This document shows positions 39,790-63,482 of a DNA stretch of 64,000 nt, in pieces. Source of the stretch: Pseudooceanicola antarcticus (lineage in GTDB: Bacteria; Pseudomonadota; Alphaproteobacteria; Rhodobacterales; Rhodobacteraceae). The position numbers and the translations under genes are program-made. The stretch lies in NCBI RefSeq assembly GCF_900215355.1, contig NZ_OBEA01000001.1, forward strand, positions 1 through 64,000, read 5' to 3'. Under the pieces are notes generated by a model. It was not told the origin of the DNA. It saw only the letters and a list, made by a program, of their open reading frames with translations, and did not search any database. How positions within the stretch are numbered: the first letter of the stretch is position 1; each line of letters opens with the position of its first letter.

Positions 39790-41154
39790 TCAGCTCTTGC
39801 CGAAGTGCTCCATGATCGCGGCGGCGTACTTGATGCCCTGGATGTACTTGTCCACGTGCACGTTCTCGTCCGGGGCATGCAGGTTGCAGCCGGGATTGGC
39901 GAAGCCGGTCAAGACGCAGGGAATCCAGACGTGACGCAGGATGGCGCCCTCGGCCGAGACGCCGTTGACGATCGGGGGCTCGCCATAGACCTCATGGGCG
40001 GCGGCGATGATCGCCTCGCTGATGTCTTCCTTGGCCGAGATCTTGTAGGGCTCCTCGGCGCGCTCGAAGGTCCGCACCTCGATGTTGTCGAAGCCCTGGG
40101 CCGCGATGTGGTCGCGCAGCTTCTTCGCCGCGGCATCAGGCTGGATGTTGGGGATCAGGCGGAAGTCCATGCGCACCCGCGCCTCGGCCGGAACGATGGT
40201 CTTGGTGCCCTTGCCGGTGTAGCCGCCGACGATGCCCTGGATATTGGCCGTAGGCTCGTAGGTGCGGGCGCGGACGGCGTCGATGCCTTCGCGGTTCAGC
40301 ACGAAGTTGTCGACGCCCAGCTCTTCCTTCAGCAGGTCGAAGTCGATCCGCGCGGCCTTGTCGGCCAGGAAGCCCTCGTGATCCTCGTCGGGGATGTAGA
40401 TGCCCTCGGCCCAGTCGTCGATCAGGATATTGCGGTCCCGGTCCATGATCGTGGCCAGGCAGTGGACCAGGTCCCAGACCGGGTTCGGCACTAGCGGGAA
40501 GTTCAGCGAATGCACGTCGGTCCTGGCGCCCCGCGCCACCAGCTCGACGAAGAGCACCGACTTCAGGCCAAGCGAGACATCGGGCACATCCGGGCCGACT
40601 TCCAGCGACCCGTCCAGGCAATGCATCCCGTCCGCCGCCAGCAGCTCCTTGTTCTGCTCGGCCCAGGGCCCGAGGTTCGGAGAGCCGATTTCCTCTTCCC
40701 CCTCGATCAGCAGCTTCAGTCCGACCGGCACGTCGCCGCGTACCGCCAGGAAGGCCTTGGCCGCCTTGTTGAAGGCCATGACGCCGCTCTTGTTGTCCGT
40801 GGCGCCGCGCCCGTAGAGCACGCCGTCGACGATCTCGGCCGACCAGGGCCCACCGTGGGTCCAGGCCTCGATCGGCTCGGGCGGCTGCACGTCGTAGTGC
40901 GAGTAGCAAAGCATGGACTTCTTCGAGCTCTTCGACTTGATCTCTCCGAAGACAACCGGGGGACCTTCACGCAGTTCGTGGAACTCCGCCGGCAGCCCGT
41001 CCTTGTGCATCATGTCGCGCAGCAGCTCGGCGCATTCGCGCAGACCGATGTCCTGTGCAGAGATCGACGGCTGGCGCACGAAGCTCTGCAGATCGGCGAC
41101 GAATTCGTCGGCGTGGGCATCGATGTAGTCGTAGATTTCCTTCATGTCGCTCAT
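39790..41154 (-). CDS. M20 family dipeptidase/peptidase
   Basis: A 454-residue zinc peptidase of the M20 (CNDP/PepV-like) family. Metal ligands lie in CYSHYDVQPPEP, GRGATDNKSG and EGEEEIGSP; the C-terminal His is in GAILRHVWIP or the HAPDENVH motif. The family hydrolyses dipeptides or amide-linked amino acids. Last gene of the 11-gene minus-strand operon that starts at 50660. It is ATGA-coupled to the SDR gene upstream and followed by a strong hairpin terminator. Confidence 0.92.
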   Translation of the reverse strand: MSDMKEIYDYIDAHADEFVADLQSFVRQPSISAQDIGLRECAELLRDMMHKDGLPAEFHELREGPPVVFGEIKSKSSKKSMLCYSHYDVQPPEPIEAWTHGGPWSAEIVDGVLYGRGATDNKSGVMAFNKAAKAFLAVRGDVPVGLKLLIEGEEEIGSPNLGPWAEQNKELLAADGMHCLDGSLEVGPDVPDVSLGLKSVLFVELVARGARTDVHSLNFPLVPNPVWDLVHCLATIMDRDRNILIDDWAEGIYIPDEDHEGFLADKAARIDFDLLKEELGVDNFVLNREGIDAVRARTYEPTANIQGIVGGYTGKGTKTIVPAEARVRMDFRLIPNIQPDAAAKKLRDHIAAQGFDNIEVRTFERAEEPYKISAKEDISEAIIAAAHEVYGEPPIVNGVSAEGAILRHVWIPCVLTGFANPGCNLHAPDENVHVDKYIQGIKYAAAIMEHFGKS

Positions 41155-41867
41155 GTCGTTTCCTCCTGGGACAGGTCCCATGCGTTGAGCCGCGCCCCGC
41201 TGAACCCCGGCGCCCGCGTGGCGGCAATCCGCAGGAAGGCGGGGGCCAGCGCCGCTGGCGCGACCCACTTCTTCTTCAGCTCCGGGGGGTAGTTCTGTTC
41301 CGACATCGGCGTCTGCATCGCCATGCCGGGGGTGATCGTGCAGGACAGGATGCCCGCGGCCTCGCCTTCCATGGCCAGGCACTTGGAGAGCCCCTCCAGC
41401 GCGTGCTTGGCGGCGCAATAGGCGGTCTCGTCGGCAAAGCCCTTGATGCCGGACTGCGAGGAGACGAAGATCAGCGCCCCGCCGCCTCGCGCCACCATGT
41501 CGGGCCAGACGGCCTGGGCCAGGATGAAGCCCGCGTCGATGCCCACGTCCAGCGTGGCGCGGAACATCTCGTAGCTGACCTCGGCGAAGGGCTGGGGTTT
41601 CAGGATGGCGGCGTTATGCACCAACGTGTCGACCGGCCCGGCTGCGCGCAGCTCGGCGATGGCGGCGCGGGTGGCATCCGCATCGGAGAGGTCGCAGACC
41701 ACGGTCCGGGCACCCAGCTCGGTTCCCAGGGCGGCCAGCGCCGCCCCGTCCCGGTCGATCAGCCCCAGCGAGGCCCCCTCGGCGGCGAAGGCGCGCGCGA
41801 TGGCCGCGCCAAGTCCCTGCGCCGCGCCGGTGATGACGACATGCTGTTCGGCAAGGGGGCGGGTCAT
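41151..41867 (-). CDS. Short-chain dehydrogenase/reductase
   Basis: A 238-residue classical SDR: cofactor motif TGAAQGLG near residue 14, NNA-like HNAA, catalytic Ser in VSSQSG, and YCAAKHA (YxxxK). Asp in LIDRDG after beta-2 favours NAD(H). It oxidises a secondary alcohol or reduces a ketone; substrate unknown. ATGA overlaps join it to the oxidoreductase gene upstream and to the M20 gene downstream. Confidence 0.92.
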   Translation of the reverse strand: MTRPLAEQHVVITGAAQGLGAAIARAFAAEGASLGLIDRDGAALAALGTELGARTVVCDLSDADATRAAIAELRAAGPVDTLVHNAAILKPQPFAEVSYEMFRATLDVGIDAGFILAQAVWPDMVARGGGALIFVSSQSGIKGFADETAYCAAKHALEGLSKCLAMEGEAAGILSCTITPGMAMQTPMSEQNYPPELKKKWVAPAALAPAFLRIAATRAPGFSGARLNAWDLSQEETT

Positions 41868-42946
41868 GTGGCGCTGGCCAGGTCGAGGTCGATCCAGCGG
41901 CGTTCCTCGGTCGAGGTCCAGACCGCGTCCAGCACCATCTGGTTGCGCAGCCCGTCCACGAAGGTGGCGCCACGGGCCAGCGGGCGGCCCTCTGCGATGG
42001 CCGAGGTCAGCTCGCGCAGGGCCTCCAGGACCGAGACGTTCCAGATGCCCTTGTTCAGACCCGGCAGGCCCGCATTGGGATCGGTGACGGTGATCTCCTC
42101 GAAGCCGCCGGTGCCCTTGGCGAAGTAGAGCCGCTCATCCGAGTTCGACAGGGTGATCGTCCCCTTCGAGCCAAAGATCTGCGTCTCGTTACCCATGTTG
42201 GCGGCGGCGACACCGGACATGAAGACCTGCGCCAGCGCGCCCGAGGGCATCTGCAGCGTGAGGTGAGAGAGGTCGTCGGAGGTCGCTGTCCAGCCCTCAC
42301 CGGTCTTCGGGTCGATCCGGTCCGGCACCATGGTCAGCGCCTGGCCGATGACCGAGGCGGGCTCTCCCAGCCACCAGCGCAGCATGTCCACCTGGTGCGA
42401 GCCATTGGCCCCCAGGCGGCCGCCGCCCTGGGCGCGGTCCGACCACCAGTCGCCGCGCGGACGGCTGGCGGGGTCGTTCCAAGAGGCGCCGATATTGGTG
42501 ATGTTGATATGCCGGATCTCGCCCAGGTCGCCCTGGGCGATCATCTCGGCGATACGGGCACGATTGGGATTGAAGCGCAGCTCGTGGTCCACCATGTGCA
42601 GGCGGCCTGCGGCACGGGCGGCCTCCAGCATGGCGCGGGCCTCGGCCGCGTTCATGGCCGTCGGCTTCTCGCACAGGACATGGGCACCGCGAGCCACGCA
42701 GGCCTCAACCATGGGGGCATGCATGACGGTCGGCGTGGCGATGCAGACCAGGTCCAGCTCGACCTCGTCCAGCATCTGCCGCCAGTCGTCGTAGACATGT
42801 TCGATCCCGTGCGGCTCGCTGGCGGCACGGGCGCTCTCCATCCGCCCGGAGGCCAGCGCGACGGGGGTCGCGCCGTCGATGTGGGCAAGCGCGGGCAGAT
42901 AGGCATCGCGGGCAAAGCTCGCGCCGATAATTCCCGTTCTGATCAT
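41864..42946 (-). CDS. Gfo/Idh/MocA family oxidoreductase 1
   Basis: A 360-residue NAD(P)-dependent dehydrogenase of the glucose-fructose oxidoreductase family. Rossmann start IRTGIIGASFARDAYLP and catalytic-domain motif LCEKPTAMN (Lys of EKP). The second domain is the usual beta-sheet dimer face (DLSHLTLQMPSGA). Members act on sugars, inositols and cyclitol or imine compounds. Four-base overlaps tie it to the SDR downstream and to a paralogous gene upstream. Confidence 0.92.
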   Translation of the reverse strand: MIRTGIIGASFARDAYLPALAHIDGATPVALASGRMESARAASEPHGIEHVYDDWRQMLDEVELDLVCIATPTVMHAPMVEACVARGAHVLCEKPTAMNAAEARAMLEAARAAGRLHMVDHELRFNPNRARIAEMIAQGDLGEIRHINITNIGASWNDPASRPRGDWWSDRAQGGGRLGANGSHQVDMLRWWLGEPASVIGQALTMVPDRIDPKTGEGWTATSDDLSHLTLQMPSGALAQVFMSGVAAANMGNETQIFGSKGTITLSNSDERLYFAKGTGGFEEITVTDPNAGLPGLNKGIWNVSVLEALRELTSAIAEGRPLARGATFVDGLRNQMVLDAVWTSTEERRWIDLDLASAT

Positions 42947-43995
42947 GCTGATTTCTCCTGTTGGTCTGTTTCTTCGCGCAGCTCGGCGATGCTGACGGGG
43001 GCTCCGCGGTCCGAAGACCGGATGCAGGCCGCCAGCATGAGCAGAGATTGCAGATGGTCACGCCCCGAACACTCCAGCGGGCCCTGGCCCGTGAAGGCCC
43101 GCACGGCCATGTCGAGCAGGGCACGGGCATCGGTGAGCCAGGGTTCATGCGGGGCCATGGGGACGGGGGTGTACTCCGCTTCGGTCCGCCGGGCGGCGAC
43201 CAGGTCCGAGAACATCTCGCGCTGGATCAGGACCCCGTCGGTGCAGTCGGTGCGCCAGTCGAAATCCAGCCGGTCGACGCCGCCCGCCCAGGTGCCCTGG
43301 TAGTTGACGAACATCCCGCCCTCGAAGTCGATCAGCGCCGAAACATTGGCGTCGCCACGGTACATCGACCAGCTGGGGTTGAAGGTCCGGGCGTCGATCC
43401 TCAGCGGCTCGGCCCCGTAGACATGGCGCATCAGGTCGAAGTGGTGGATCGACTGCTCCCAGAGCATCGGCTGATCCATGGTCAGCGGGTACTTGTTCAG
43501 ATGCGGCAGCTGGCCGTCGCGCCAGCGCTCGTAGGTGAAACGGGCGAACTCGGGCTGGCCGACACGCCCTTCGGCCAGGGCCTGGCGCAGGGCGACGGTG
43601 ACCGGCAGGTAGCGGAAGTTCAGCCCGACGATCAGCTTGCGGCCCAGGGACTCGGCCTGTGCCACGTAGCGCGCGGCCAGGCCGACATCATCGGCCAGGG
43701 GCTTCTCGGCCAGGATGTCCAGCCCGGCGCCGAGGCAGGCCTCGATCTGGGCCTCCCGACCGCCCGGTGGCGTGACCAGAAGCGCCGCGTCGGCCTCGAC
43801 CTGTCGCAGCAGGCCGGCCGCATCCGCAGCCGTTGCGGCCGCCGGGAACAGGGTCGCCGCCGCCTTGAGGGCCGCCTCTCCGGGATCGGCCAGGCCCACG
43901 ACCTGCACGTCGTCGCGTTCGGCGACCACGCGCAGCCAGGTCCGGGCTCGGGCGCCGAGACCGATGACGACAAGGCGCAGGGGGGAAGGGGTCAT
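42943..43995 (-). CDS. Gfo/Idh/MocA family oxidoreductase 2
   Basis: A 350-residue paralog of the neighbouring oxidoreductase: Rossmann start LRLVVIGLGARARTWL, LAEKPLADD catalytic motif, and GLNFRYLPVTVALRQAL. The catalytic-domain His/Asp region is HHFDLMRHVYG. The pair of such genes side by side suggests two successive oxidation steps or a heteromer. Coupled by ATGA to the genes on both sides. Confidence 0.92.
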   Translation of the reverse strand: MTPSPLRLVVIGLGARARTWLRVVAERDDVQVVGLADPGEAALKAAATLFPAAATAADAAGLLRQVEADAALLVTPPGGREAQIEACLGAGLDILAEKPLADDVGLAARYVAQAESLGRKLIVGLNFRYLPVTVALRQALAEGRVGQPEFARFTYERWRDGQLPHLNKYPLTMDQPMLWEQSIHHFDLMRHVYGAEPLRIDARTFNPSWSMYRGDANVSALIDFEGGMFVNYQGTWAGGVDRLDFDWRTDCTDGVLIQREMFSDLVAARRTEAEYTPVPMAPHEPWLTDARALLDMAVRAFTGQGPLECSGRDHLQSLLMLAACIRSSDRGAPVSIAELREETDQQEKSA

Positions 43996-44912
43996 GGGGT
44001 ATCCTCCGACAGGCCGAGGGCCGCCAGTCCGGCCGGGATCGCTGTCCAGTCAAGCAAGGCCATGGGCGAGCGGCGGCAACTGCCCATGGGCGGGCGCATC
44101 GGCCCGTCGGTTGCGAAGTGGCGTGGCACACCCGGCGCGATCAGCTCTGCCAGGGCCTCATCGCCGATGGCCGGCGGCGTACCCGCGTGCAGGACGCCGG
44201 GTTCAACGTCGGGCAGGGCCTCGAGAAGCGCGGCGACGCCCTGGGCGAGATCCGGCAACCAGGCCCATTCCCGCAGGGCGCCTGCCCGGCCCGAGCGCAG
44301 CATGCCCTGCACCGCCTCGGCATGCAGGCGCTGCGGCAGGCTGAGACCGGGGCGGGAGGGGCGCGCCACCTCGCCCGGCCCGAAGATATTGCCCAGGCGC
44401 AGGGGAAGGGCAGCGAAGTCCGGCTCTTGGGCGGCCATGGTCAGGATCTCTCCCGCCAGCTTGGTGGCGGCATAGGGGCCCTTGGCCGTCGGGGTCATGT
44501 CCTCGGTCAGCCGTGCCCGGTCCAGCCCGTCGCGCTGGTCGAAGACCCCGGTGGAGCTCAGAAAGATGAGCCGCCCGGCCCCGGCCTGCCGGGCCTCGGC
44601 CAGGGCGCGCAGGGTCAGGGTGGTGTTCATCTCCAGATGCGCCGCCGGGCTGATCCCGAGCGCCTCGGGTGAGGCCGTCAGCGCCGCGCCATGGATCACC
44701 GCCCCCGGCGCCAGGGAGGCGATGACCCCCGGCGAGGCCAGCAGATCTGCCTCGACGAGACGCACGCCTGTCAGCTTCCGCCGCGCCGCTGCGTCGAAGT
44801 GCCGGTCCAGGGCGGTGACCTGCCATCCACGGCTGGCCAGCGCCTGCGCAAAGGCCGCGCAGACGAAGCCACCGGCCCCGGTGACCACCACATGACGTCG
44901 GTCGCCGCTCAT
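43992..44912 (-). CDS. NAD-dependent epimerase/dehydratase family protein
   Basis: A 306-residue extended-SDR. The nucleotide motif is VTGAGGFVCAAFAQAL, where the third Gly of GxxGxxG is Cys. The catalytic YxxxK is in KGPYAATKLAGE, and SSTGVF supplies Ser/Thr. It probably acts on a sugar or a lactone/hydroxyacid compound. ATGA overlap with the downstream oxidoreductase; 43-base gap to the AllA-like gene upstream. Confidence 0.88.
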   Translation of the reverse strand: MSGDRRHVVVTGAGGFVCAAFAQALASRGWQVTALDRHFDAAARRKLTGVRLVEADLLASPGVIASLAPGAVIHGAALTASPEALGISPAAHLEMNTTLTLRALAEARQAGAGRLIFLSSTGVFDQRDGLDRARLTEDMTPTAKGPYAATKLAGEILTMAAQEPDFAALPLRLGNIFGPGEVARPSRPGLSLPQRLHAEAVQGMLRSGRAGALREWAWLPDLAQGVAALLEALPDVEPGVLHAGTPPAIGDEALAELIAPGVPRHFATDGPMRPPMGSCRRSPMALLDWTAIPAGLAALGLSEDTP

Positions 44913-44955
44913 CGCTGGGAAGCCATCTGGGCAGTCATCAGGACGGGCCGGCGGC

Positions 44956-45477
44956 TCATGCGCCGGGCTCCATCAGGGTGACTGGCGGGATCGAGCGGAA
45001 CTCATCGTCCGCACCCGGTCCGCCGCGCCACATCATCACGACGAAATTGCCGTCGCGGTCGAGGACGCAGGCGCCCATGTGCCAGACCATCGGGCGGAAG
45101 ATCACGCCCCGGTTGCCGGGCACCAGGAAGCCCTGCGCCGCCGCGGGCACCGGGTCGCCGTTCTCGTCCGAGGGCATCACCATCACGACGTAGCGGCTGA
45201 CATCCATCGGCACGAAGCATTGCGCCGCATGGGGGTGGCGCTCGACGCCGGCGCAGACCAGCGGCAGCACCGAGGGCGCGACCCGGTTCACGTGCACCAC
45301 GGGGGCGGCCGTTTCCGGGCGCGGGTCGAAGTGGGCGCTGTAGAAGGCCCGGCGCTCCGAGACGGCGGGGGGCTTCACGAATTCGCCGAAGGGGGCGAAG
45401 GCGGCATCATCTGGGTCTTGAAGCACGATCACCTGTTCGTTCGACAGGCGGCGTGCAGGTCGTCCGGTTCCGGTCAT
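44956..45477 (-). CDS. Ureidoglycolate lyase (AllA) family protein
   Basis: A 173-residue cupin-like protein of the AllA family, which splits ureidoglycolate to glyoxylate and urea. Recognisable motifs: GVERHPHAAQCFVPM (substrate/metal His) and the PMVWHMG turn with second conserved His. True AllA starts nearer the core; the first 20 residues here are extra. Overlaps the allantoinase-like gene by four bases. Whether the ureidoglycolate activity is retained is uncertain, because the nearby genes do not form a standard allantoin pathway. Confidence 0.82.
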   Translation of the reverse strand: MTGTGRPARRLSNEQVIVLQDPDDAAFAPFGEFVKPPAVSERRAFYSAHFDPRPETAAPVVHVNRVAPSVLPLVCAGVERHPHAAQCFVPMDVSRYVVMVMPSDENGDPVPAAAQGFLVPGNRGVIFRPMVWHMGACVLDRDGNFVVMMWRGGPGADDEFRSIPPVTLMEPGA

Positions 45478-46373
45478 GCAGGCGACACCTCGGCCCAGTG
45501 CCGCGCGATATCCGCGCGCCCCGCGATCCAGACGCCCTCGGCCTTCTGAACATGGTCGATGAAGCGCATCAGGCCCGACAGTCGCCCTGGGTGACCCAGG
45601 ATGCGCGAATGGATACCGACCGACATGATGCGCGGCCTGGTGGCGGCTTCCGCCAGCAGCACATCGAAGGAGGCGATCAGGAAATCCGCGTAGTCCTGCG
45701 GATTGAAGACATCGCCCGAGAGGAACTTGGCGTCATTGGTCACAAGCGAATAGGGCACCACCAGGTGAGCCGTCTCGCCGACCGCGGTCCAATAGGGCAG
45801 GTCGTCGTTGTAGGCATCGCTGTCGTAGCTGTAGCCACCGTGTTCGACCACCAGGCGCCGGGTCCGGGGCGAGCGGGAATAGCGGCTGTACCAGCCATCG
45901 GGCGCGCGGCCGGTCATGCGCTTGATGCTGTCGTAGGCGCGGGCGATATGCTCGCGCTCGGTCGCCTCGTCCAGCCGGTAGTGCTCGATCCAGCGCCAGC
46001 CATGGGCGCAGATATCCCAGCCGCTTTCGGCCACCGCCTCGGCCACCTTGGGCGCCCGTTCGAGGGCCAGGCCGCAGGCGAAGATGGTCAGCGGCAGGCC
46101 ACGGTCGCGGAACAGGTCCCGGATGCGCCAGAAGCCGGCGCGCTGGCCATATTCGTACATGCTCTCCGATGCGAGGTCGCGGTCCCCCTGGGGCACGCGC
46201 GGCGCGCGCACCTCCAGCAGGGCCCCCTCGGAGCGGCCATCGCCATCCCCGAGAGAGTACTCGGACCCCTCCTCTACGTTCAGCACGAAGTTCAGTGCAA
46301 GACCTGCACCATTGGGCCAGCGCACCTGCGGCGCGCCGCCCCCGTACCCAAGGAAGTCACGTGTGTCTGTCAT
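45474..46373 (-). CDS. PuuE-type allantoinase / polysaccharide deacetylase family protein
   Basis: A 299-residue NodB-fold hydrolase resembling PuuE, the metal-independent allantoinase: N-terminal GYGGGAPQVRWPNGAGLALNFVLN, conserved YEYGQRAGFWRI, HGWRWIEHYRLD and GIHSRILGHPGR motifs. PuuE opens the hydantoin ring of allantoin; related proteins act on other cyclic or acylated amides. Coupled by ATGA to the AllA-like gene, which would use a ureido product. Confidence 0.85.
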   Translation of the reverse strand: MTDTRDFLGYGGGAPQVRWPNGAGLALNFVLNVEEGSEYSLGDGDGRSEGALLEVRAPRVPQGDRDLASESMYEYGQRAGFWRIRDLFRDRGLPLTIFACGLALERAPKVAEAVAESGWDICAHGWRWIEHYRLDEATEREHIARAYDSIKRMTGRAPDGWYSRYSRSPRTRRLVVEHGGYSYDSDAYNDDLPYWTAVGETAHLVVPYSLVTNDAKFLSGDVFNPQDYADFLIASFDVLLAEAATRPRIMSVGIHSRILGHPGRLSGLMRFIDHVQKAEGVWIAGRADIARHWAEVSPA

Positions 46374-46406: not shown

Positions 46407-47405
46407 TCAGTCACGGGTACCCTCCACCTTGCAGAAGAAGCAGCACCAGTCACCCATCTGGACGTTGGGGAAGGCGCGCAGGCCGAAGAACATGCCGTCC
46501 GCCGGGGCCTCCAGTGCCCCGACCTCGTCGCCGAAGACATCGACAATGCGCGCGATCGGGTCGCCCTTCTTCATCATGGTCAGGAAATCCACGCCCTCGA
46601 CCGGCAGGTAGATGCCCGAGGCCGGTGCCAGCAGCGCTTCCTGCACGCCCTTGTAGCAGGGGTCGGGATAGGCGGCTTCGCCGGGCAGCATGTCGTAGTG
46701 GTAGCAGATGTTCAGGATCGAGGCCGCCAGTTCCTCGGCCACCCAGCGGAAGCGGTCGGGCGAGGTCGCCGAGCGGCCGCCCAGCTCGACCGTGATGCCG
46801 GTCTTGCCGCTGCCGTTGAGCGCGGCCATCGGGCTGCCGGTCTTGGTGAAGTTGGACATGATGCAGCCCCAGCCCGGCCCCATGGCCTTGGCCAGTTCGA
46901 CCGATTCCGGGCGCTCGTCGACGAAGATCGCCTTGTCGAGGTAGGAATGCGAACCGCCCGAGTGGATCGAGATCTCGATGTCGGCGACATCCTTCATCGC
47001 CATCCAGTGAGCGTGCGCGATCCGTTCCGAGAAATAGCCATCAGCCTTGCCCGGATAGATGCGGTTCATGTCGTAGGTGAAGGTATCCAGCGGGTTGCCC
47101 CGCTCGGCGGCCGAGAAGGCCATCGGGTTGACCACCGGCACCAGCACCACGGCGCCGGTCAGCTGCGCGGGGTCGATGCGGCCCATGGCCAGCTGGCAGG
47201 CGCGCGGGCCCTCGGGTTCGTCGCCATGGATGGCGCCGTTGACCCAGAAGACACGGCCGGGCTTGGCGCCGTTGATCACGACGACCGGGATGTCGACGCG
47301 GAGGCCCCCCGCAAGGGTGCTGGCGGCGATATGGCCGCGCGCGATTTCACCGGGCTTCGCCGAGGCGCTGCCCACCGTCAGGGTCTGGTTCTCTACCGTG
47401 CTCAT
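46407..47405 (-). CDS. Succinylglutamate desuccinylase/aspartoacylase (AstE) family protein
   Basis: A 332-residue zinc carboxypeptidase-like deacylase. Metal motif GAIHGDEPEG (HxxE) near residue 58, the downstream Asn/Arg pair in DMNRIYPG, His in IEISIHSGG, and Glu in TVELGG. The family removes acyl groups from amino acids (aspartoacylase, AstE, DoeB). ATGA overlap with the VOC gene upstream. Substrate unknown. Confidence 0.88.
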   Translation of the reverse strand: MSTVENQTLTVGSASAKPGEIARGHIAASTLAGGLRVDIPVVVINGAKPGRVFWVNGAIHGDEPEGPRACQLAMGRIDPAQLTGAVVLVPVVNPMAFSAAERGNPLDTFTYDMNRIYPGKADGYFSERIAHAHWMAMKDVADIEISIHSGGSHSYLDKAIFVDERPESVELAKAMGPGWGCIMSNFTKTGSPMAALNGSGKTGITVELGGRSATSPDRFRWVAEELAASILNICYHYDMLPGEAAYPDPCYKGVQEALLAPASGIYLPVEGVDFLTMMKKGDPIARIVDVFGDEVGALEAPADGMFFGLRAFPNVQMGDWCCFFCKVEGTRD

Positions 47406-54868: not shown

Positions 54869-54892
54869 TCCAAGACCAACAGGGAGCACGAG

Positions 54893-56119: not shown

Positions 56120-57300
56120 TGTCCCTGCTGCATGACCGTATCGCCCCCCGTATCGTCGAAGAGGACGGGGCCTTCCGCACCAGGATGCTGGGCATCGCCG
56201 CCCAGATGGACGACGTGATCGCCCTCGGCCGCGGCGATCCCGACTTCCACACCCCGGCGCATATCGTCGAGGCGGCGAAGGCCGCCCTGGATGCCAACCA
56301 GCACCATTACACCGGCCCGACCGGCCTGCCGGAGCTGCGCCAGGCGATCTCCGAGAACCTGACCAACGAATACGACCTGGACTATACGCCGGACGAGATC
56401 ATGGTCACCGCCGGGGTGCAGGAATCCATCACCCTGCTGATGCTGGGCCTCTGCGCGCCCGGCGACGAGGTGCTGATCACCTCTCCGCGCTTCACCACCT
56501 ACGACACGGCGGTGCATCTGTGCGGCGGCGTGCCGGTGCCTGTGCCGACCTACCTGCGGGACGACTTCGCCCTCGATCCCGACGAGATCGAGAAGCGCAT
56601 CACCGACAAGACGCGGATGTTCGTGCTGGTCTCGCCCAACAATCCGACCGGCGCCGTCACCCCTCCCGAGGTGATCCGCCGCATCGCCGAGCTGGCGATC
56701 CGCCACGACCTGCTGATCATCGCCGACGAGATCTATGCCAAACTGATCTACGACGGCCACGAGCACCTCTCGATCGCGACCCTGCCCGGCATGAAGGAGC
56801 GCACCATCACGCTCAACGGGTTCTCGAAGACCTACGCCATGACCGGCTGGCGCGTCGGCTACCTGGCCGCGCCGCTGGACTTCGTGGAAAAGATGACCGA
56901 GCCGCGGCACACGCTGTCGATCAACACCTGCACGGTCAGCCAGCACGCGGCCCTGGCCGCGCTGAACGGGCCGCAGGCCCCCATCGACCAGATGCACGCC
57001 GAATACGCCGAGCGTCGCGCCTGGCTGACCCAGGCACTGGAGGATGCGGGCCTGCGCTACGGCGCACCGGGTGGCGCCTTCTACATCTACACCGATATCT
57101 CCAGCACCGGCATGAAGGCCAAGGACTTCTGCGAAGGGCTGCTGCGCGCCACCGGCGTCATGGTCTTCCCCGGCGACATGTTCGGTGATCCCGACAGCGA
57201 TTTCATCCGCATTTCCTACCTGCAGCCGCTCGACATGATCCGCGAGGCCATGCGCCGCATCGCGGGCTTCGTGGCCGACAAGAAGAAAGGGGCCGCATGA
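56119..57300 (+). CDS. PLP-dependent class I/II aminotransferase 2
   Basis: A 393-residue aminotransferase paralogous to the one in the divergent operon: PLP Lys in NGFSKTYAMTGWR near residue 238, SPNNPTG, and VSQHAALAALNGP. Having one copy in each arm of the locus suggests two different amino donors or acceptors in one pathway. ATG overlaps the amidohydrolase stop; ATGA overlap with the TIM-barrel-like gene. Confidence 0.93.
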   Translation: MSLLHDRIAPRIVEEDGAFRTRMLGIAAQMDDVIALGRGDPDFHTPAHIVEAAKAALDANQHHYTGPTGLPELRQAISENLTNEYDLDYTPDEIMVTAGVQESITLLMLGLCAPGDEVLITSPRFTTYDTAVHLCGGVPVPVPTYLRDDFALDPDEIEKRITDKTRMFVLVSPNNPTGAVTPPEVIRRIAELAIRHDLLIIADEIYAKLIYDGHEHLSIATLPGMKERTITLNGFSKTYAMTGWRVGYLAAPLDFVEKMTEPRHTLSINTCTVSQHAALAALNGPQAPIDQMHAEYAERRAWLTQALEDAGLRYGAPGGAFYIYTDISSTGMKAKDFCEGLLRATGVMVFPGDMFGDPDSDFIRISYLQPLDMIREAMRRIAGFVADKKKGAA

Positions 57301-58733
57301 CCGCGTTCCAGAAACCCGACCCGTCCGAGAAGTTCGTCGGCATCCAGGTCAGCCCGATCAGCTTCGTCGACGAGGGCACCGATGCGGTGCTCGACACCCT
57401 GCACGACCGCGTGGGGGTCAACGTCCTGATGCTGGGCACCGTGTCCTGGCTGGGCCTGAAGACCGGCCGCTCGATCAGCCACGCGCTGGACGGCTGGCCC
57501 GATCATGGCGTGCCCGAGCCCTTCACCATGAAGGGCGGCGCCTACTTCGACCCCGACCCCCGCTTCTACGCCAACACCATGATCAAGGACTTCCGCGCCA
57601 CGGACCCCGAGATGGAGGGGATCGACATCCTCGACCTGGTGATCCCCGAGGCCAGGAAGCGCGGCATGAAGGTCTATCCCGAGCTGATGGAGCCCTTCTT
57701 CAAGTACGCCGGCCACGGCTCCGCCAATACCATCGAGGTCCCGAACCTGCCGCAGGTGATGGAGATCGACGTCTTCGGCCGGATGAAGGACGAACCCTCG
57801 ACCTCGAACCCCGACTACCGGACCTGGATGCACTCGATGATCGAGGACCAGGTGCGCAACTACGACGTCGACGGGCTGATGTGGTGCAACGAGCGCAACT
57901 CGCCGCTGGACCAGCTGATCCAGGGCCAGGCGCCGGGTGACTTCTCGGAGGCCTCGCTGGAACAGGCGCGGCGCCGCGGCATCGACACCGAGGCCTGCCG
58001 GCGGGCGCTGATCAAGATGTGGGAATTCATGCAGGCCGCGCTGGCCGGCGACGAGTTCGACGACGGCGCCTTCCTGACCTTCCTGCGCGTGCTGATGGAG
58101 AACCCCGAGATCCTGATCTGGGAACGCTACTGGCTGGAGCGCAACAAGGACCTCGACCGCGAGCTCTTCGGGCTGGTCAAGTGGTGCAAGCCGGGTCTGC
58201 CCTTCGGGCTCAACGTCTGGAACCGCAACCACTTCAACATCTTCCGCCGCGCCCAGTGGCCCTGGGAAGAGCAGACGATGTACGCCGACTGGGTCAAGCC
58301 GATCACCTATCAGCACCAGTCTGGCCAGATCTGGGCCAAGGAGTTCGGCTTCTTCCAGAAGACCATCCTGCGCGATTTCGATCCGGCCACGGCGGCCGCC
58401 GTGATGTCCAACGTGCTGGGCCTCGGCGCCCCGCCGCTCGACACCGCCATCCAGGAGGGGATGGACCCCGATGTCTACGTCTACGGCCAATGCGCCGACG
58501 CGCTGCGCGGCGTCCATGACAAGGCCAAGGTCTACATGGGCATCGGCATCGACGCGCCCCGCGTCCAGGCGGACCAGGCGAAGTGCACGCCCGATATCGC
58601 CTACCGCTCGGTCATGGCGACCTATCGCGCCGGCGGCCATGGCGTCGTCCTGTCGCCCAACTACGCCTCGATGCACCTGTCCAACCTCGATGGTGTCGCC
58701 CAGGCCCTGACCGAACTGGGGCTGAAGGCATGA
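57297..58733 (+). CDS. Uncharacterised TIM-barrel-like protein
   Basis: A 478-residue soluble protein I cannot place in a named family. The pattern of beta-strands ending in acidic residues (KVYPELMEPFF, VDGLMWCNERNSPLD, GLNVWNRNHFN, MGIGIDAP) resembles (beta/alpha)8 glycosidase-like barrels; Glu in WCNERN and Glu in YPELMEP would be candidate acid/base and nucleophile. No signal peptide. Four-base overlaps with the genes on both sides make it an integral part of the operon, so it probably acts on the same cytosolic substrate. Confidence 0.7.
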   Translation: MTAFQKPDPSEKFVGIQVSPISFVDEGTDAVLDTLHDRVGVNVLMLGTVSWLGLKTGRSISHALDGWPDHGVPEPFTMKGGAYFDPDPRFYANTMIKDFRATDPEMEGIDILDLVIPEARKRGMKVYPELMEPFFKYAGHGSANTIEVPNLPQVMEIDVFGRMKDEPSTSNPDYRTWMHSMIEDQVRNYDVDGLMWCNERNSPLDQLIQGQAPGDFSEASLEQARRRGIDTEACRRALIKMWEFMQAALAGDEFDDGAFLTFLRVLMENPEILIWERYWLERNKDLDRELFGLVKWCKPGLPFGLNVWNRNHFNIFRRAQWPWEEQTMYADWVKPITYQHQSGQIWAKEFGFFQKTILRDFDPATAAAVMSNVLGLGAPPLDTAIQEGMDPDVYVYGQCADALRGVHDKAKVYMGIGIDAPRVQADQAKCTPDIAYRSVMATYRAGGHGVVLSPNYASMHLSNLDGVAQALTELGLKA

Positions 58734-60103
58734 CGGACCTGACGATCACCGGGGGGGAGGTTCTGCTTCCCTCCGGTCCCGCCCGCGTCGACCTCTCGGT
58801 CAAGGATGGGCGCATCGCGGGCCTGCACGCGCCCGGCAGCGCCCCCGCCGCCCCCGAGACGCTGGACGCCACCGGGCTGACCGCCCTGCCCGGCATCGTG
58901 GACATCCACTTCCACGTCCGCGCCCCGGCCTATCCCGAGCGCGGCACCGTCGCCTCGGAGACCCGCGCCGCCGCCGCCGGCGGTGTCACCACCCTCTTCG
59001 AGATGCCGATCTCCAAGCCCTGCTGCGCCACGCCCGAGATCTTCGAGGACCGCCGGGCCCATTTCGCCGAGAACGCGGTGGTGGACTTCGGTCTCTATGC
59101 CGCTCCCGGCGACCTGACCGAGGCGACGCGGGACCGCTTCCTGGAACAGGGGGCCATTGCCTTCAAGATCTTCACCACCCCCGCCCCGGCGGGACGCGGA
59201 GACGAGTTCGACGGCCTGGCCTTCCCAGAGGAGGACGATCAGTTCCGCGCCCTGAAGGTCCTGGCAGGGACCGGCCGCCCCGTGGTGGTTCATGCCGAAA
59301 GCGCCGCCCTGCTGGCGCACTTCGAGACCATGGCGCGCAACACCCTGGACCCGAGCTCGGGCTACAGCCACAACCTGTCGCGCCCGGCGGTCTGTGAAAG
59401 CACCGCCGTAGCCAAGCTTCTGGCGATGAACATCACCGCCGGCGCCAAGCTGCACATCGCCCATGTCACCAGCGCCGAGACCGTCGCCGTGCTGCGCGCC
59501 TTCAAAGGCACCTCGGATTTCACTGCCGAGACCTGCCCGCAGTACCTCTTCGCCACCGAAGCGGACGTGGACCGGGCCGGCATCTACGCCAAGGTGAACC
59601 CTCCGATCCGCACCCAGGCGGACCAGGATGCCCTCTGGGAAGCCATCGCCGACGGCACGATCACCCATGTGACCACCGATCACGCCCCTTTCGCCAAGGC
59701 CGAGAAACAGGCCTCTGAGGGGAATTTCTTCACCGCGCCTCCGGGCAGTCCGGGGATCGAGACGATGCTGCCGGCCATGCTGGATGCGGTGTCGGCTGGG
59801 CGGCTGTCGCTGAAACAGGCCCATGACCTGATTTGCGCCAATGGCGCGGCGCTTTACGGACTGGCCCCGCGCAAGGGCAGCCTGCTGCCCGGAGCGGATG
59901 CCGATATCGCGCTGGTCGATCTGGCCGGAGAGACCGAGGTCCGCCTGGGCGGGCTGGTCAGCCATGCCCGCGACGTGGCCCACCTCTGGGACGGGCGCCG
60001 CTTCCGCGGCCGGGTCGCGCGCACCCTTCTGGCCGGGCGCACGGTCTGGGACGGACGCCAGGTGACCGGGCGCGAAGGCGGCGGCCGCTTCGTCACCCCC
60101 TGA
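58730..60103 (+). CDS. Dihydroorotase/allantoinase/hydantoinase-type cyclic amidohydrolase
   Basis: A 457-residue AllB/DHOase-type metallohydrolase. Metal site: HxH in VDIHFHVRAP, carbamylatable Lys in IAFKIFTTP, His in VVVHAES, His in LHIAHVTSA, Asp in TTDHAPFAK. It opens cyclic ureides such as allantoin, hydantoins, dihydropyrimidines. Last gene of the plus operon; ATGA overlap with the TIM-barrel-like gene; a strong terminator follows at 60127. The open frame begins further upstream, but the overlap start at 58730 gives a family-like N-terminus. Confidence 0.9.
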   Translation: MTDLTITGGEVLLPSGPARVDLSVKDGRIAGLHAPGSAPAAPETLDATGLTALPGIVDIHFHVRAPAYPERGTVASETRAAAAGGVTTLFEMPISKPCCATPEIFEDRRAHFAENAVVDFGLYAAPGDLTEATRDRFLEQGAIAFKIFTTPAPAGRGDEFDGLAFPEEDDQFRALKVLAGTGRPVVVHAESAALLAHFETMARNTLDPSSGYSHNLSRPAVCESTAVAKLLAMNITAGAKLHIAHVTSAETVAVLRAFKGTSDFTAETCPQYLFATEADVDRAGIYAKVNPPIRTQADQDALWEAIADGTITHVTTDHAPFAKAEKQASEGNFFTAPPGSPGIETMLPAMLDAVSAGRLSLKQAHDLICANGAALYGLAPRKGSLLPGADADIALVDLAGETEVRLGGLVSHARDVAHLWDGRRFRGRVARTLLAGRTVWDGRQVTGREGGGRFVTP

Positions 60104-60126
60104 TTCAACCAGGGTACAACGCATTG

Positions 60127-60152
60127 AAAAGGGGGCCTTTCGGCCCCCTTTT
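60127..60152. terminator. Bidirectional intrinsic terminator
   Basis: Perfect 11-bp stem AAAAGGGGGCC (60127-60137) with GGCCCCCTTTT (60142-60152), four-base loop. T tracts lie on both sides in the appropriate orientation, so it ends both the plus-strand catabolic operon and the minus-strand permease operon (dppC-like ends at 60198). Confidence 0.92.
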
Positions 60153-60197
60153 CCTGTCTCATGCTTGCAGCTGTCGAAAGCAGGCGAGGCGGGTGCC

Positions 60198-61133
60198 TCA
60201 GCTGCGTTCCTTCAGGCGCGGGTCCAGGAAGTCTCGCAGCCAGTCGCCGATGATGTTGAAGGCCAGCACGGTCAGCACGATGGCCAGGCCGGGGAAGACC
60301 GCCAGCCACCACTTGTTCGACAACAGGTGATCGCGGCTCTCGGACAACATGCTGCCCCAGGTCGGCACCGTCGGCGGCACCCCGAGACCCAGGAAGGACA
60401 GCGCCGCCTCGGACAGGATCACGCTCGCCACGTTGAACGATGCGATGACCGTCAGCGGCGCGACGATATTGGGCAGGATGGTGCGGAACAGGATCGAGAA
60501 CAGCCCGTCGCCCATGGCGCGGGCGGCCTCGACGTATTCCTTCTCGCGCAGGCTCAGGGTCTGGGCCCGGACGATGCGCGCATAGGTGATCCACTGACCG
60601 ATCCCCAGCACCAGGATGATGTTCACCAGCCCCGGCCCCAGCACGACAAGGAACATGATCGCCAGCAGGATGAAGGGGAAGGCCAGCTGGATATCGCCAA
60701 GGCGCATGATCACGTCGTCGATCCATCCGCCGAAGTAGCCCGAGATCAGCCCCAGAAGGGTGCCGATCGAGCCGCCCACGACAATCGCCGCCATACCGAC
60801 CAGCAACGAAACCCGTGCCCCGTATAGCAGCCGCGACAGCACGTCCCGGCCCAGATGGTCCGAGCCCAGCCAGAAGGTCGCCCCCCGCGGCCCCTCGGCC
60901 ATCGGCGGCAGCAGCCGCATCATGATGTTCTGCCGGTTCGGGTCCATCGGCGACAACAGGGGGCCAAAGATCGCGATGAAGGCCGCCGCGGTCAGGATGA
61001 TCATCCCGACAAGCGCCCACCGACTTGCGACCATGCTGCGCAACGCGCGCTGCATCTCGCGGCGCCGGTAGGACACCGGAGCGGCCGCGCTCTTCTGCGA
61101 CGCCGGTTGCGATTGGGGTTCGACATTGGCCAT
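60198..61133 (-). CDS. Oligopeptide/dipeptide ABC transporter permease (DppC/OppC-like)
   Basis: A 311-residue inner-membrane permease. The N-terminal cytosolic part and first helix (LRSMVASRWALVGMIILTAAAFIAIFGP) are typical of DppC; the EAA coupling loop is EYVEAARAMGDG. It forms the channel with the DppB-like protein. Start at 61133 follows GAAGGAGA; a longer frame beginning with TTG is unlikely. It follows the DppB-like gene by 11 bases. Confidence 0.94.
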   Translation of the reverse strand: MANVEPQSQPASQKSAAAPVSYRRREMQRALRSMVASRWALVGMIILTAAAFIAIFGPLLSPMDPNRQNIMMRLLPPMAEGPRGATFWLGSDHLGRDVLSRLLYGARVSLLVGMAAIVVGGSIGTLLGLISGYFGGWIDDVIMRLGDIQLAFPFILLAIMFLVVLGPGLVNIILVLGIGQWITYARIVRAQTLSLREKEYVEAARAMGDGLFSILFRTILPNIVAPLTVIASFNVASVILSEAALSFLGLGVPPTVPTWGSMLSESRDHLLSNKWWLAVFPGLAIVLTVLAFNIIGDWLRDFLDPRLKERS

Positions 61134-61144
61134 GCCGGTCTCCT

Positions 61145-62119
61145 TCAAAGTTTGACGCGCGGATCGAGCCGCGAATAGATCAGGTCGACGACGAGATTCA
61201 GCACGATGAAGATCATCGCCAGCAGGATCACCGAGGCCTGGACGACGGGAATGTCCCGCTGGTTGATCGCGTTGAACACGAGGCGACCGATACCGGGGTA
61301 GGAGAACACCGTCTCGACCACCACGACCCCGCCCAGCAGGAAGCCGAACTCGAGGCCGATCATCGTGACCACCGGCAGCCAGGCATTGCGCAGGGCATGA
61401 TGCGTGATGACCTGCCAGTCCCGGATGCCCTTCGAGCGTGCCGTGCGCACGAAATCCTGTTGCAGGACCTCCAGCATGGACGACCGCACGAGGCGGGCGT
61501 TGCGCGCCAGCGTGTAGGATCCGACGGCGATGGCGGGCATCGTCATGTAGTAGATGCTTTGGGGGATGTTGCCGATCGCGGTCGAAAAATCGCCCTCGAG
61601 CAGCGGCTCCAGCACGGGCACATGTCCCGAGATCGGGAACCAGCCGAGGTAAAGGCCGAAGTACATGATCATCATGATCCCCATCCAGAAGTTGGGAATC
61701 GACTGGCCCAGCATGGCGAAGGTCATGATGCCGCCATCAATCGGCGTGCCCCGCTTCAGGGCCGAGTAGACCCCCAGCGGGATCGACAGGGCGATGGCCA
61801 GGACAAGTGAGAAGACGGTCAGCTCGATGGTCGCCGGCATCGCGTCGAGGACAACCCCCATGGCCGGCTGCCGGTAGCTTAGCGAATTGCCGAAGTCGCC
61901 ATGCAGCGCGTCCCAGATGTAGCGCAGGTACTGGATGTGCAGCGGCGCGTCGAAGCCAAGCGCTTCACGGGCCCGCTGGATTTCCTCGGCGCTCGCGTTC
62001 TCGGAGACGAACAAGTAGGTCGGGTCGCCCCCGATCTGCAACGAGATGAAACTGATCATGGTCACGCCGATGATCACGATGGCGCTCTGCAATAGGCGCC
62101 GAACAAGGAAAGTCCACAT
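61145..62119 (-). CDS. Oligopeptide/dipeptide ABC transporter permease (DppB/OppB-like)
   Basis: A 324-residue inner-membrane permease with the OppB/DppB start MWTFLVRRLLQSAIVIIGVTMISF, a periplasmic loop and the EAA-type sequence DFVRTARSKGI in the last cytosolic loop. First gene of the permease unit, divergent from the ATPase genes on the other strand. Its control region contains site B of the shared operator. Confidence 0.94.
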   Translation of the reverse strand: MWTFLVRRLLQSAIVIIGVTMISFISLQIGGDPTYLFVSENASAEEIQRAREALGFDAPLHIQYLRYIWDALHGDFGNSLSYRQPAMGVVLDAMPATIELTVFSLVLAIALSIPLGVYSALKRGTPIDGGIMTFAMLGQSIPNFWMGIMMIMYFGLYLGWFPISGHVPVLEPLLEGDFSTAIGNIPQSIYYMTMPAIAVGSYTLARNARLVRSSMLEVLQQDFVRTARSKGIRDWQVITHHALRNAWLPVVTMIGLEFGFLLGGVVVVETVFSYPGIGRLVFNAINQRDIPVVQASVILLAMIFIVLNLVVDLIYSRLDPRVKL

Positions 62120-62288: not shown

Positions 62289-62298
62289 ATTGTCGACA
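62289..62298. promoter_or_regulatory. GntR-type operator candidate, site B
   Basis: Plus strand ATTGTCGACA; its complement is TGTCGACAAT, identical over ten bases to site A at 50766-50775. The core TGTCGACA spans 62291-62298. It lies 170 bases upstream of the DppB-like gene and about 70-130 bases upstream of the DppD-like gene, depending on its start. An overlapping GTCTA...TAGAC inverted repeat (62281-62285 with 62300-62304) surrounds it. Confidence 0.55.
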
Positions 62299-62366
62299 GT
62301 AGACCACCAAGAAATCTCGTCGTCAACCTGACGCAAGGCTGCATAACTGCCGAAAAACAAGGCGAT

Positions 62367-63482
62367 ATGGTGCAGAAGCGGCGATCGGGCACGGCAGGAG
62401 AAACAAGCACGGAGAACGCCCAGGAAATGCCAGCCGCACTAATAGACAGCATTCCGGCAACGGCAAGGCCCGCCGAGGCCAGAACCCTGCTACGCGTCAA
62501 GGACCTTCAGACGACGTTCCGCACCGGCGGAAATTCGAGCGTCCGCGCGGTCGACGGAGTCAGTTTTGACCTCGACCCCGGAGAGACGCTCGCCATCGTG
62601 GGAGAGTCGGGGTCCGGCAAATCCGTGACCAGCCTCTCGCTCATGGGCCTGCTGCCGAAGGACACCGGCTCCGTCACCGGCGGCAGCATGCGCCTGAACG
62701 GCTTTGAGATGCGCGGCTTCAGCGAGGAAGAGATGCGCGCCGTGCGCGGCAAGCAGATCGGCATGATCTTCCAGGAACCGATGACCTCGCTGAACCCGGT
62801 GAAGACCGTCGGCTGGCAGATCATGGAAATGGTCATGCACCACGAGAAACTCTCGCGGCGGGCTGCCTATCGCCGCGCCATCGAGATGCTGGACCTCGTC
62901 GGCATCCCCGAACCGGCGCGCCGCGTGGACAACTATCCCCACCAGATGTCCGGCGGCATGCGCCAGCGCGCGATGATCGCGATGGCCCTGTCCTGCGAAC
63001 CCCGCATCCTGATCGCGGACGAGCCGACAACGGCGCTGGACGTGACCATCCAGGCGCAGATGCTGGAACTGATGAAGGACCTGCAGGACCGCATGGGGAT
63101 GGCGATCATCTTCATTACCCATGACCTTGGCGTGGTGGCCGAAGTCGCCGACCGGGTCGTGGTCATGTACGCCGGCCAGGTCGTAGAAAGTGGCGAGGTC
63201 GAGCAGATCTTCGAGGCCCCGCGCATGCCCTACACGGCCGGTCTGATGAACTCGATCCCGCGAATCGGTGCGTCGCGGCGCAAGGAACGGCTAAGGGCGA
63301 TCCCCGGAACCGTGCCGCCGCTGTCGGACCTGCCTCATGGCTGCCGGTTCAACCCGCGCTGCGCCCATGCCACCGAGCTGTGCCGCGCGACGCCCCCCGC
63401 CCTGGAAGAGGTCGGCCCCGGCCATGCCGTCCGCTGCGCCCGCTGGCGCGACATCACCCTCGACATCATGGACACAGAATGA
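62367..63482 (+). CDS. Oligopeptide/dipeptide ABC transporter ATP-binding protein (DppD/OppD-like)
   Basis: An ABC ATPase of 371 residues from the chosen start. Walker A GESGSGKS near residue 80, Q-loop [10 protein letters not shown], signature [12 protein letters not shown], Walker [13 protein letters not shown], and the OppD/F C-terminal Cys region [14 protein letters not shown], which can hold an Fe-S cluster in some members. Start is uncertain: ATG 62367 or ATG 62427. The 40-60 residue N-terminal tail is longer than usual. Overlaps the next ATPase gene by four bases. Confidence 0.9.

What the first reader, a model, noticed from the sequence alone, without database searches (positions are those of the whole stretch)
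39790..63482. Divergent two-operon catabolic locus with an oligopeptide-type importer and no matching known pathway
Nineteen enzyme-like genes in two divergent operons, packed with ATGA overlaps, are bounded by hairpin terminators and flanked by a Dpp-type ABC transporter. They combine two peptidases (M32, M20), AstE-, AllA-, PuuE- and AllB-like amide hydrolases, an M24 hydrolase without its metal ligands, two aminotransferases, two Gfo/Idh oxidoreductases, SDR, epimerase, Ldh2-type dehydrogenase, a VOC protein, tandem DUF4438 proteins and an unassigned TIM-barrel-like protein. Mixed ureido/amide chemistry plus transamination and redox steps suggests degradation of an N-rich cyclic or acylated compound, perhaps a modified amino acid or peptidic osmolyte. 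I know no described pathway with this gene set.
Basis: partly seen in the sequence, partly recalled or inferred. Interest (0 to 1): 0.72.

Follow-up and report, generated by a model that had tools for sequence, protein, structure and literature searches.

The report
Unknown peptide-type nutrient degradation gene island
A block of about 25 genes, kept together and apparently under one shared control switch in distantly related bacteria, encodes an importer and an unusual set of enzymes that most likely break down a peptide-like nutrient whose identity is still unknown.

Summary
The 19 enzyme genes lie at the stated places in two divergent, tightly overlapping operons, closed by strong hairpins. 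The unit is larger: oppF, a GntR/FCD regulator and oppA follow, making 25 genes over 39,790-67,093. Among 390 genomes of the order, the DUF4438 pair, the unassigned TIM-barrel protein and this M24 subfamily occur in the same 12; all 11 relatives carry all 19 genes in the same order. Related clusters occur in Rhizobiales, Gemmatimonadota, Acidobacteriota, Deinococcota and Chloroflexota. The palindrome TGTCGACA lies upstream of the first DUF4438 gene in 65 of 81 distinct loci, and in the window's genome also before the transporter genes and the regulator, so both arms and importer look like one regulon. None of the 19 reaches the cut-off of any listed NCBIfam model; other AllA and PuuE copies, the PuuE above its cut-off, lie elsewhere in the genome. 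Best reading: a catabolic regulon that moves between lineages, for a peptide-like, probably sugar-bearing compound with cyclic-amide groups. The substrate is not identified.

The parts
39696..39789 (.). two-way hairpin between the minus arm and the upstream penicillin-binding protein gene
   Evidence: z -4.3 (minus) and -4.4 (plus)
39790..41154 (-). M20 peptidase-like (dipeptidase type)
   Evidence: metal ligands kept (only 3 sequences)
41151..41867 (-). short-chain dehydrogenase (SDR)
41864..42946 (-). Gfo/Idh oxidoreductase A
   Evidence: lysine of the EKP motif kept in 14 of 14
42943..43995 (-). Gfo/Idh oxidoreductase B
   Evidence: lysine kept in 47 of 47
43992..44912 (-). NAD-dependent epimerase/dehydratase-like
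   Evidence: lowest identity among relatives
44956..45477 (-). AllA-like (ureidoglycolate lyase family) divergent paralogue
   Evidence: another, higher-scoring copy elsewhere
45474..46373 (-). PuuE-like (NodB/allantoinase family) divergent paralogue
   Evidence: a copy above the cut-off elsewhere
46407..47405 (-). AstE/AspA/DoeB-type deacylase
   Evidence: active-site positions kept in 47 of 47
47402..47893 (-). VOC protein with a His-Gln-His-Glu site (methylmalonyl-CoA epimerase-like)
   Evidence: 64 of 64
47911..49113 (-). class I aminotransferase 1
   Evidence: PLP lysine 63 of 63
49131..50660 (-). M32 carboxypeptidase (Taq type)
   Evidence: HETGH positions 55 of 55
50766..50773 (.). operator-like palindrome TGTCGACA in the divergent promoter region
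50858..51739 (+). DUF4438 protein a (agrees with single-copy DUF4438 proteins at most positions where a and b differ)
51736..52611 (+). DUF4438 protein b (other fixed polar residues)
52608..53714 (+). Ldh2-type dehydrogenase
53711..54868 (+). M24-fold hydrolase with altered metal site
54893..56119 (+). amidohydrolase 1 (Xaa-Pro dipeptidase / arginine carboxypeptidase type)
   Evidence: metal-ligand positions 54 of 54
56119..57300 (+). class I aminotransferase 2
   Evidence: PLP lysine 69 of 69
57297..58733 (+). unassigned glycosidase-like TIM barrel (GHL)
58730..60103 (+). amidohydrolase 2 (AllB / hydantoinase type)
   Evidence: metal-ligand positions 57 of 57
60104..60197 (.). hairpin between AH2 and oppC
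   Evidence: z -4.3 (plus), -2.6 (minus)
60198..61133 (-). OppC-type permease
61145..62119 (-). OppB-type permease
62291..62298 (.). operator-like palindrome TGTCGACA between oppB and oppD
   Evidence: present in 9 of 9 such regions, the window's and eight relatives of the same family
62370..63482 (+). OppD-type ATPase
63479..64000 (+). OppF-type ATPase, cut by the window end (runs to 64447 on the contig; then palindrome at 64559-64570, gntR 64734-65429, oppA with frame end at 67093)

Best explanation
It is one catabolic regulon that moves between distantly related bacteria. A GntR/FCD repressor (gene just outside the window) probably binds TGTCGACA palindromes in three promoter regions of the locus and is released by the substrate or an early product. 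An Opp-type ABC importer takes up a peptide-like compound. Peptidases (M32, M20, AH1; M14 in relatives) trim the peptide part. A set of C-N hydrolases (AH2, PuuE-like, AstE-like, the M24 protein with an altered metal site, and probably the DUF4438 pair) opens cyclic amide or acyl-amide bonds. The glycosidase-like barrel, two Gfo/Idh proteins, the epimerase and the SDR deal with a sugar or polyol part. The two aminotransferases, Ldh2 and VOC proteins carry the amino, hydroxy and oxo acids to central metabolism. Shown here: the unit, its conservation, the shared palindrome, conserved active-site positions. Inferred: direction (breakdown), the repressor and its binding, peptide nature, sugar part, order of steps, and everything about DUF4438 chemistry.
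For: Same 19 genes in the same order in 11 of 11 relatives with the pair; DUF4438 pair, GHL and the M24 subfamily in the same 12 of 390 genomes. Related clusters in most of the best 80 of 523 matching places of a genome collection, from several phyla; the tree mixes phyla. TGTCGACA within 350 bases before DUF4438a in 65 of 81 distinct loci, another TGTNNACA in 7 more, against 77 of 3,900 random stretches; in 9 of 9 oppB-oppD regions read, all from the window's family; before gntR in 20 of 52 loci that hold one, the window's genome included. Pair distances of genes of both arms correlate with DUF4438b (M32 0.90, AstE 0.89, Ldh2 0.89, AH2 0.91), though without an unlinked gene as control. The active-site positions examined are invariant except two of three Ldh2 histidines and one extra M24 position. 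Only GHL's fold points to sugar directly: Cwp19, PgaB and glycosidases.
Against: No substrate is known and none of the 19 reaches the cut-off of any listed NCBIfam model, so the chemistry rests on superfamilies. Ureide-type, peptidase and sugar-type enzymes together fit no single compound that I know. That the GntR protein binds the palindrome is inferred from position and motif class; 32 of 52 loci with a GntR gene lack the word before it, and 16 of 81 DUF4438a regions lack TGTCGACA, 9 of them any TGTNNACA. Some genes correlate less with DUF4438b: AT1 0.73, AT2 0.62, VOC 0.74, OppD 0.52, SDR -0.17 from six sequences. L115 and L116 have the pair with few or none of the other enzymes, L117 and L123 lack GHL, M24 and most hydrolases, and G310 has one DUF4438 gene, an Opp system and none of the rest. 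Related clusters need not share one substrate.
Confidence: 0.55

Rival explanations
1. Catabolism of cell-wall fragments (muropeptides): the Opp-type importer brings in muropeptides, peptidases and AH1 take the peptide, deacylases remove acetyl groups, the GHL10-like barrel and Gfo/Idh proteins take the amino sugar, Ldh2 the lactate.
For: Nearest fold of GHL is Cwp19, and PgaB follows; Cwp19 is a lytic transglycosylase by its paper title (PMC6016235, search listing). Rhizobiales and Rhodobacterales lack AmpG and an alternative transporter, YejBEF-YepA, serves in Agrobacterium (PMC9790009, title and start of abstract). Peptidoglycan is available in all the habitats concerned (inference).
Against: No NagZ, LdcA, anhydromuramic kinase, etherase or muramoyl amidase among the domains found in the cluster (those names are recalled). 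Nearest solved relatives of the binding protein are YliB and AgaA, and its nearest models Opp4A and GsiB. AllA-, AllB- and PuuE-like enzymes are not needed. GHL is below the GHL10 cut-off (20.3 of 27.9 bits).
Confidence: 0.13
2. A ureide or hydantoin pathway, an allantoin-like route with paralogous AllB, PuuE, AllA and Ldh2 (AllD-family) enzymes acting on an N-substituted hydantoin carried by a peptide.
For: Four families of the allantoin pathway occur together, AllA-like and PuuE-like genes overlap by 4 bases, and the positions examined are invariant in both.
Against: A PuuE above its cut-off and a higher-scoring AllA lie 1.3 kb apart elsewhere in the genome. The 16 Chloroflexota-type loci have no AllA- or PuuE-like gene in the stretch held. 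Ldh2 is closer to sulfolactate and malate dehydrogenases than to AllD.
Confidence: 0.12
3. An ectoine-like degradation route: the M24 protein opens a cyclic amidine, the DoeB-like deacylase removes the acyl group, aminotransferases finish.
For: M24 protein with altered metal site plus a DoeB-related deacylase plus aminotransferases is the same trio (the ectoine steps are recalled).
Against: DoeA and DoeB models score far below cut-off (47 of 613, 86 of 403 bits); the M24 protein is closer to prolidases; more than ten other enzymes are not explained; the importer is of Opp type.
Confidence: 0.06
4. A biosynthetic or repair cluster rather than a catabolic one, for example making or mending a small peptide-like cofactor.
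For: Single-copy DUF4438 proteins in one family of genomes stand beside a nitrilase-type gene nearest to deaminated-glutathione amidase, below its cut-off; that this is a repair enzyme is recalled.
Against: An importer with binding protein, a GntR/FCD regulator, many hydrolases, patchy presence (12 of 390) and no ligase, synthetase or exporter among the domains found speak for uptake and breakdown.
Confidence: 0.06

Closest known systems
Ectoine catabolism (DoeA/DoeB, EutD/EutE with aminotransferase; pathway recalled)
   Same: M24-fold hydrolase with altered metal site, DoeB-type deacylase and aminotransferases in one catabolic-type cluster with an ABC importer
   Different: Scores far below the DoeA and DoeB cut-offs; Opp importer; extra peptidases, sugar-type oxidoreductases and DUF4438; GntR/FCD regulator
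Allantoin/ureide pathway (AllB or PuuE, AllA, AllD; pathway recalled)
   Same: Superfamilies of four enzymes
   Different: All below the equivalog cut-offs; other AllA and PuuE copies elsewhere in the genome; peptidases, Opp importer and Gfo/Idh are not part of it
Opp/Dpp-fed GntR-FCD catabolic operons (opine-type and peptide-type; recalled)
   Same: Architecture: ABC importer with a family 5 type binding protein, FCD-type regulator, TGTNNACA palindrome, divergent enzyme operons; binding protein related to YliB and AgaA
   Different: No counterpart found for the enzyme set; DUF4438 pair at the centre
TM1086 of Thermotoga maritima (3dcl, 3n99), the only solved DUF4438 protein found
   Same: Sequence and fold
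   Different: Here a pair in which one member has exchanged several fixed polar residues
Cwp19 / GHL10 glycosidase-like proteins
   Same: Fold of GHL and weak profile similarity
   Different: Below the GHL10 cut-off; no signal peptide evident on reading the sequence, whereas Cwp19 is a cell-wall protein (recalled)

Membership tests
DUF4438 (PF14505 + PF20999) | both domains above the curated cut-off | tested here: met
   158/147 bits (a) and 168/134 bits (b) against 24.9/27
Ectoine hydrolase DoeA | NCBIfam cut-offs (613 and 575 bits) | tested here: not met
   47 and 46 bits
DoeB deacetylase | NCBIfam equivalog score (402.7 bits) | tested here: not met
   86 bits
Allantoin pathway PuuE | TIGR03212 cut-off 424.6 bits | tested here: not met
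   349 bits; a copy with 461.5 bits lies at contig position 335702
Allantoin pathway AllA | NCBIfam ureidoglycolate lyase cut-offs (160-315 bits) | tested here: not met
   at most 71 bits; another member of PF04115 with 190 bits at 337929 (not scored against NCBIfam)
Allantoinase AllB | TIGR03178 cut-off 357.9 bits | tested here: not met
   281 bits; metal-ligand positions present
Metal-dependent M24 peptidase | five metal ligands D,D,H,E,E (positions recalled) | tested here: not met
   G,E,H,E,I in 62 of 62
GHL10 (PF02638) | curated cut-off 27.9 bits | tested here: not met
   20.3 bits for the window's protein; 23 of 32 members match at E up to 0.1, best 6.4e-8
Muropeptide catabolism | uptake and cleavage of muropeptides | not testable with these tools
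   needs binding and growth assays
GntR/FCD-controlled regulon | shared palindrome in the promoter regions of both arms, the transporter and the regulator | tested here: met
   for the window's genome; widely, with the exceptions given there
GntR/FCD-controlled regulon | the regulator binds the palindrome and controls expression | not testable with these tools
   needs gel shift and expression data

The most novel reading that the evidence does not exclude
The DUF4438 pair is the signature of a pathway not yet described: DUF4438a and b form a heteromeric enzyme of a fold for which the structure search found no relative other than TM1086, and it opens a cyclic amide (lactam or hemiaminal-lactam) made when a sugar or oxo acid is joined to a peptide, so that bacteria of several phyla can feed on sugar-modified or cyclised peptides. 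The regulon would be the first known dedicated route for such damaged or conjugated peptides.
Probability: 0.15. Interest if true: 0.8.

Novelty: new variant of a known kind. Interest (0 to 1): 0.6.

Why it matters
A 25-gene catabolic regulon shared by bacteria of several phyla implies a widespread nutrient that is not yet on the map of nitrogen cycling. It gives a functional setting for DUF4438, a family whose name has no hit in the open paper library searched, for an unassigned glycosidase-like family, and for an M24 subfamily with an altered metal site. The shared palindrome and small number of promoters make it testable in one deletion and one induction screen.

Tried and rejected
Allantoin pathway as such: rejected because other AllA and PuuE copies, the PuuE above its cut-off, lie together elsewhere. 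Ectoine pathway as such: rejected on scores. GntC (guanitoxin cyclodehydratase) as identity of the two aminotransferases: best-ranked model for AT1 and second for AT2, but below the cut-off (308 and 345 of 415 bits), and generic aminotransferase models score about as high; not used. Plasmid collection: no match to DUF4438b. Fold search for DUF4438b: only TM1086 at E 0.001 or better; the second aligner was not available. Rfam: no match at 39000-64000. General terminator and promoter scans: at chance level. Missing DHDPS-family gene: no close relative in this genome (best 29%). HyuA/HyuB in L115 is about 3.6 kb from the DUF4438 pair and counts little.

Operator, against uniqueness: the own genome has 61 matches to WTTGTCGACARW with up to one mismatch, both strands counted, against 21 for the reversed control. 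Those on contig C16 near 32.8 and 34.8 kb belong to a second Opp locus with its own GntR paralogue; the exact match on C17 lies in a stretch in which I recognised no related gene, and the other places were not read. The palindrome was picked as the best of 33 half-site and spacer classes and compared with 5 simple shuffles per class; the later count against random stretches is independent of those shuffles but not of the choice.

Papers; no listed paper described this cluster. Listings were capped (10 of 202, 10 of 56, 8 of 29, 8 of 1,115, 6 of 9, 8 of 10). Only listings and starts of abstracts were seen; no paper was opened. The seven TM1086 hits are, by title, six unrelated works on animals or human disease and one crystallisation survey.

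Rows dropped: L125 (mis-framed extract, visible as a long branch). Eight of the 93 loci (13 G-loci and 80 named) are the same contigs as G-loci (checked), so distinct counts use 85. include the duplicates (56 of 63 divergent regions; 48 of 55 after removal). Loci reach at most 10 kb to each side in the named set, so absence at the edges says nothing, and the counts of DHDPS, M14, OppA and GntR genes are lower bounds. Each of these accessory families was named from one or two representatives.
Full report
What is there. Eleven genes run leftward from 50,660 to 39,790 and eight run rightward from 50,858 to 60,103. Neighbours overlap by four bases at eleven junctions and by one base at another. 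Both outer ends have hairpins that fold much better than shuffles. Then come oppC and oppB (leftward), oppD and oppF (rightward), a GntR/FCD regulator and oppA; the last two lie outside the window on the same contig. The unit is therefore 25 genes over 27.3 kb, with the same G+C content as its left flank (0.664 and 0.667).

Conservation. Of 390 genomes drawn from the order, 13 have DUF4438. Twelve of these (the window's genome and 11 relatives) have a pair; one (G310) has a single gene with another Opp system and none of the other enzymes. All 11 relatives have all 19 enzyme genes in the same order, some with inserted genes (oppB and oppC between the two Gfo/Idh genes in G253 and G340), and the transporter in 10 of 11 within the stretch read (in G296 the contig ends). 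GHL occurs in the same 12 of 390 genomes. The M24 protein at 60% identity or more occurs in the same 12; other M24 proteins listed reach at most 37%. The two other genomes of the window's own genus in the sample lack DUF4438.

Spread. A scan of one genome per species gave 523 matching places, of which the tool kept the 80 most similar; all 80 have both DUF4438 genes. They lie in Rhodobacterales, Rhizobiales, Gemmatimonadota, Acidobacteriota, Chloroflexota and Deinococcota, many as metagenome bins, plus single records labelled Cyanobacteriota and Actinomycetota that may be contamination. The tree of DUF4438b puts one group of Paracoccaceae with Gemmatimonadota and Acidobacteriota (97/99), away from the window's own group (100/100), which suggests transfer. 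Chloroflexota-type loci have a rearranged version without AllA-, PuuE-like and M32 genes in the stretch held. Relatives add a DHDPS-family protein (28 of 85 distinct loci), an M14 peptidase (18 of 85) and OppA (25 of 85), all lower bounds.

Control. A search for palindromes between M32 and DUF4438a found TGTCGACA in 56 of 63 regions against at most 4 in shuffled sets, and the same word in 9 of 9 regions between oppB and oppD, all nine from the window's family. Without duplicate loci it is within 350 bases of DUF4438a in 65 of 81 loci, with another TGTNNACA word in 7 more and none in 9; 77 of 3,900 random stretches of like length hold it. In the window's genome the sites are 50766-50773, 62291-62298 and one at contig position 64559-64570 before gntR. 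Of 52 loci with a GntR gene, 20 have the word close upstream of it and 32 do not. The word also occurs elsewhere in the genome, partly at a paralogous GntR-Opp locus. That GntR/FCD proteins bind TGTNNACA-type palindromes is recalled, not tested. This joins both arms, the importer and the regulator in one predicted regulon.

The enzymes. The positions examined are invariant in AH1 (54 of 54), AH2 (57), AstE-like (47), M32 (55), VOC (64), PuuE-like (47), AllA-like (50), AT1 (63), AT2 (69) and GHL (64); numbers include the window's protein, orthologues were taken above 30 or 40% identity, and residue roles are recalled. M20 could be checked in 3 sequences only. The M24 protein has G, E, H, E, I at the five metal positions in 62 of 62. 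In Ldh2 one histidine is leucine in 15 of 76 and another is tyrosine in 43 of 76; the third is invariant. None of the 19 reaches the cut-off of any NCBIfam model listed (at most the best 25 per protein are shown), so all are unassigned subfamilies. Other AllA and PuuE copies lie together elsewhere.

DUF4438. The only solved protein found is TM1086, and the predicted model (pLDDT 84) matches nothing else at E 0.001 or better. In an alignment of 80 a, 80 b and 12 single-copy proteins, 17 positions with polar residues are fixed differently in a and b; at 10 of these a agrees with the commonest residue of the single-copy proteins and at 1 b does. For example positions 66, 68, 112, 201, 203 and 237 are H, E, H, D, D, R in a and in single-copy proteins and C, H, S, S, H, H in b. 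So a looks like the ancestral type and b like a specialised partner. In 9 of the 12 single-copy loci that I fetched (of 69 genomes with a match), all nine from one family of genomes, a related nitrilase-type C-N hydrolase gene lies next to it, in one case with a gene between; its nearest model is deaminated-glutathione amidase, below cut-off, for the two tested. This is the main hint to amide chemistry for DUF4438, and it is weak.

GHL. The model (pLDDT 87) is a TIM barrel whose best matches are Cwp19, PgaB and glycosidases; Glu26, Glu199 and Asp331 are invariant. Sequence similarity to GHL10 is weak and below the cut-off. I see no signal peptide, so it probably acts inside the cell (read from the sequence).

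How it most likely works, and how sure. An imported peptide-like compound is trimmed by peptidases, its cyclic or acyl amide bonds are opened by the C-N hydrolases, a sugar or polyol part is freed and oxidised, and amino, hydroxy and oxo acids are passed on. The existence and conservation of the unit and the shared palindrome are shown; the direction, the substrate class and each chemical step are inferred. I put 0.55 on this general reading, 0.13 on cell-wall fragments, 0.12 on a hydantoin-type route. Searches of open-licence papers listed no description of this cluster; their listings were capped and subscription papers are not covered.

Noticed in passing
L105-L130 (mostly Chloroflexota) and L110, e.g. 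L130:12497-13216: A short aminotransferase-like protein (219-250 aa, 14 loci) lies before an aminotransferase gene; in the 13 of 14 in which the motif is found the PLP lysine is missing, which suggests a heteromeric aminotransferase with an inactive partner.
   Followed up: partly
L184 (contig C16 of the window's genome, 24001-44000): A second Opp locus with its own GntR/FCD-like paralogue (30% identical over 137 residues) and the palindromes ATTGTCGACAAT and ATTGTTGACAAT.
   Followed up: partly
L059: An Enemella evansiae (Actinomycetota) contig carries the enzyme cluster inside the Rhodobacteraceae group of the tree, with the same G+C as the Palleronia locus (0.649): recent transfer or contamination.
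   Followed up: no
L115:1687-5543: HyuA/HyuB proteins nearest to caprolactamase subunits (below cut-off), about 3.6 kb from a DUF4438 pair that lacks most of the cluster.
   Followed up: partly
G000:C7:33206-34075: A third PuuE-like gene in the genome, 305 bits, below the equivalog cut-off; context not read.
   Followed up: no
window 29638-36927: Left flank includes MutL, a weakly RmuC-like protein and a marine-type ammonium transporter.
   Followed up: no
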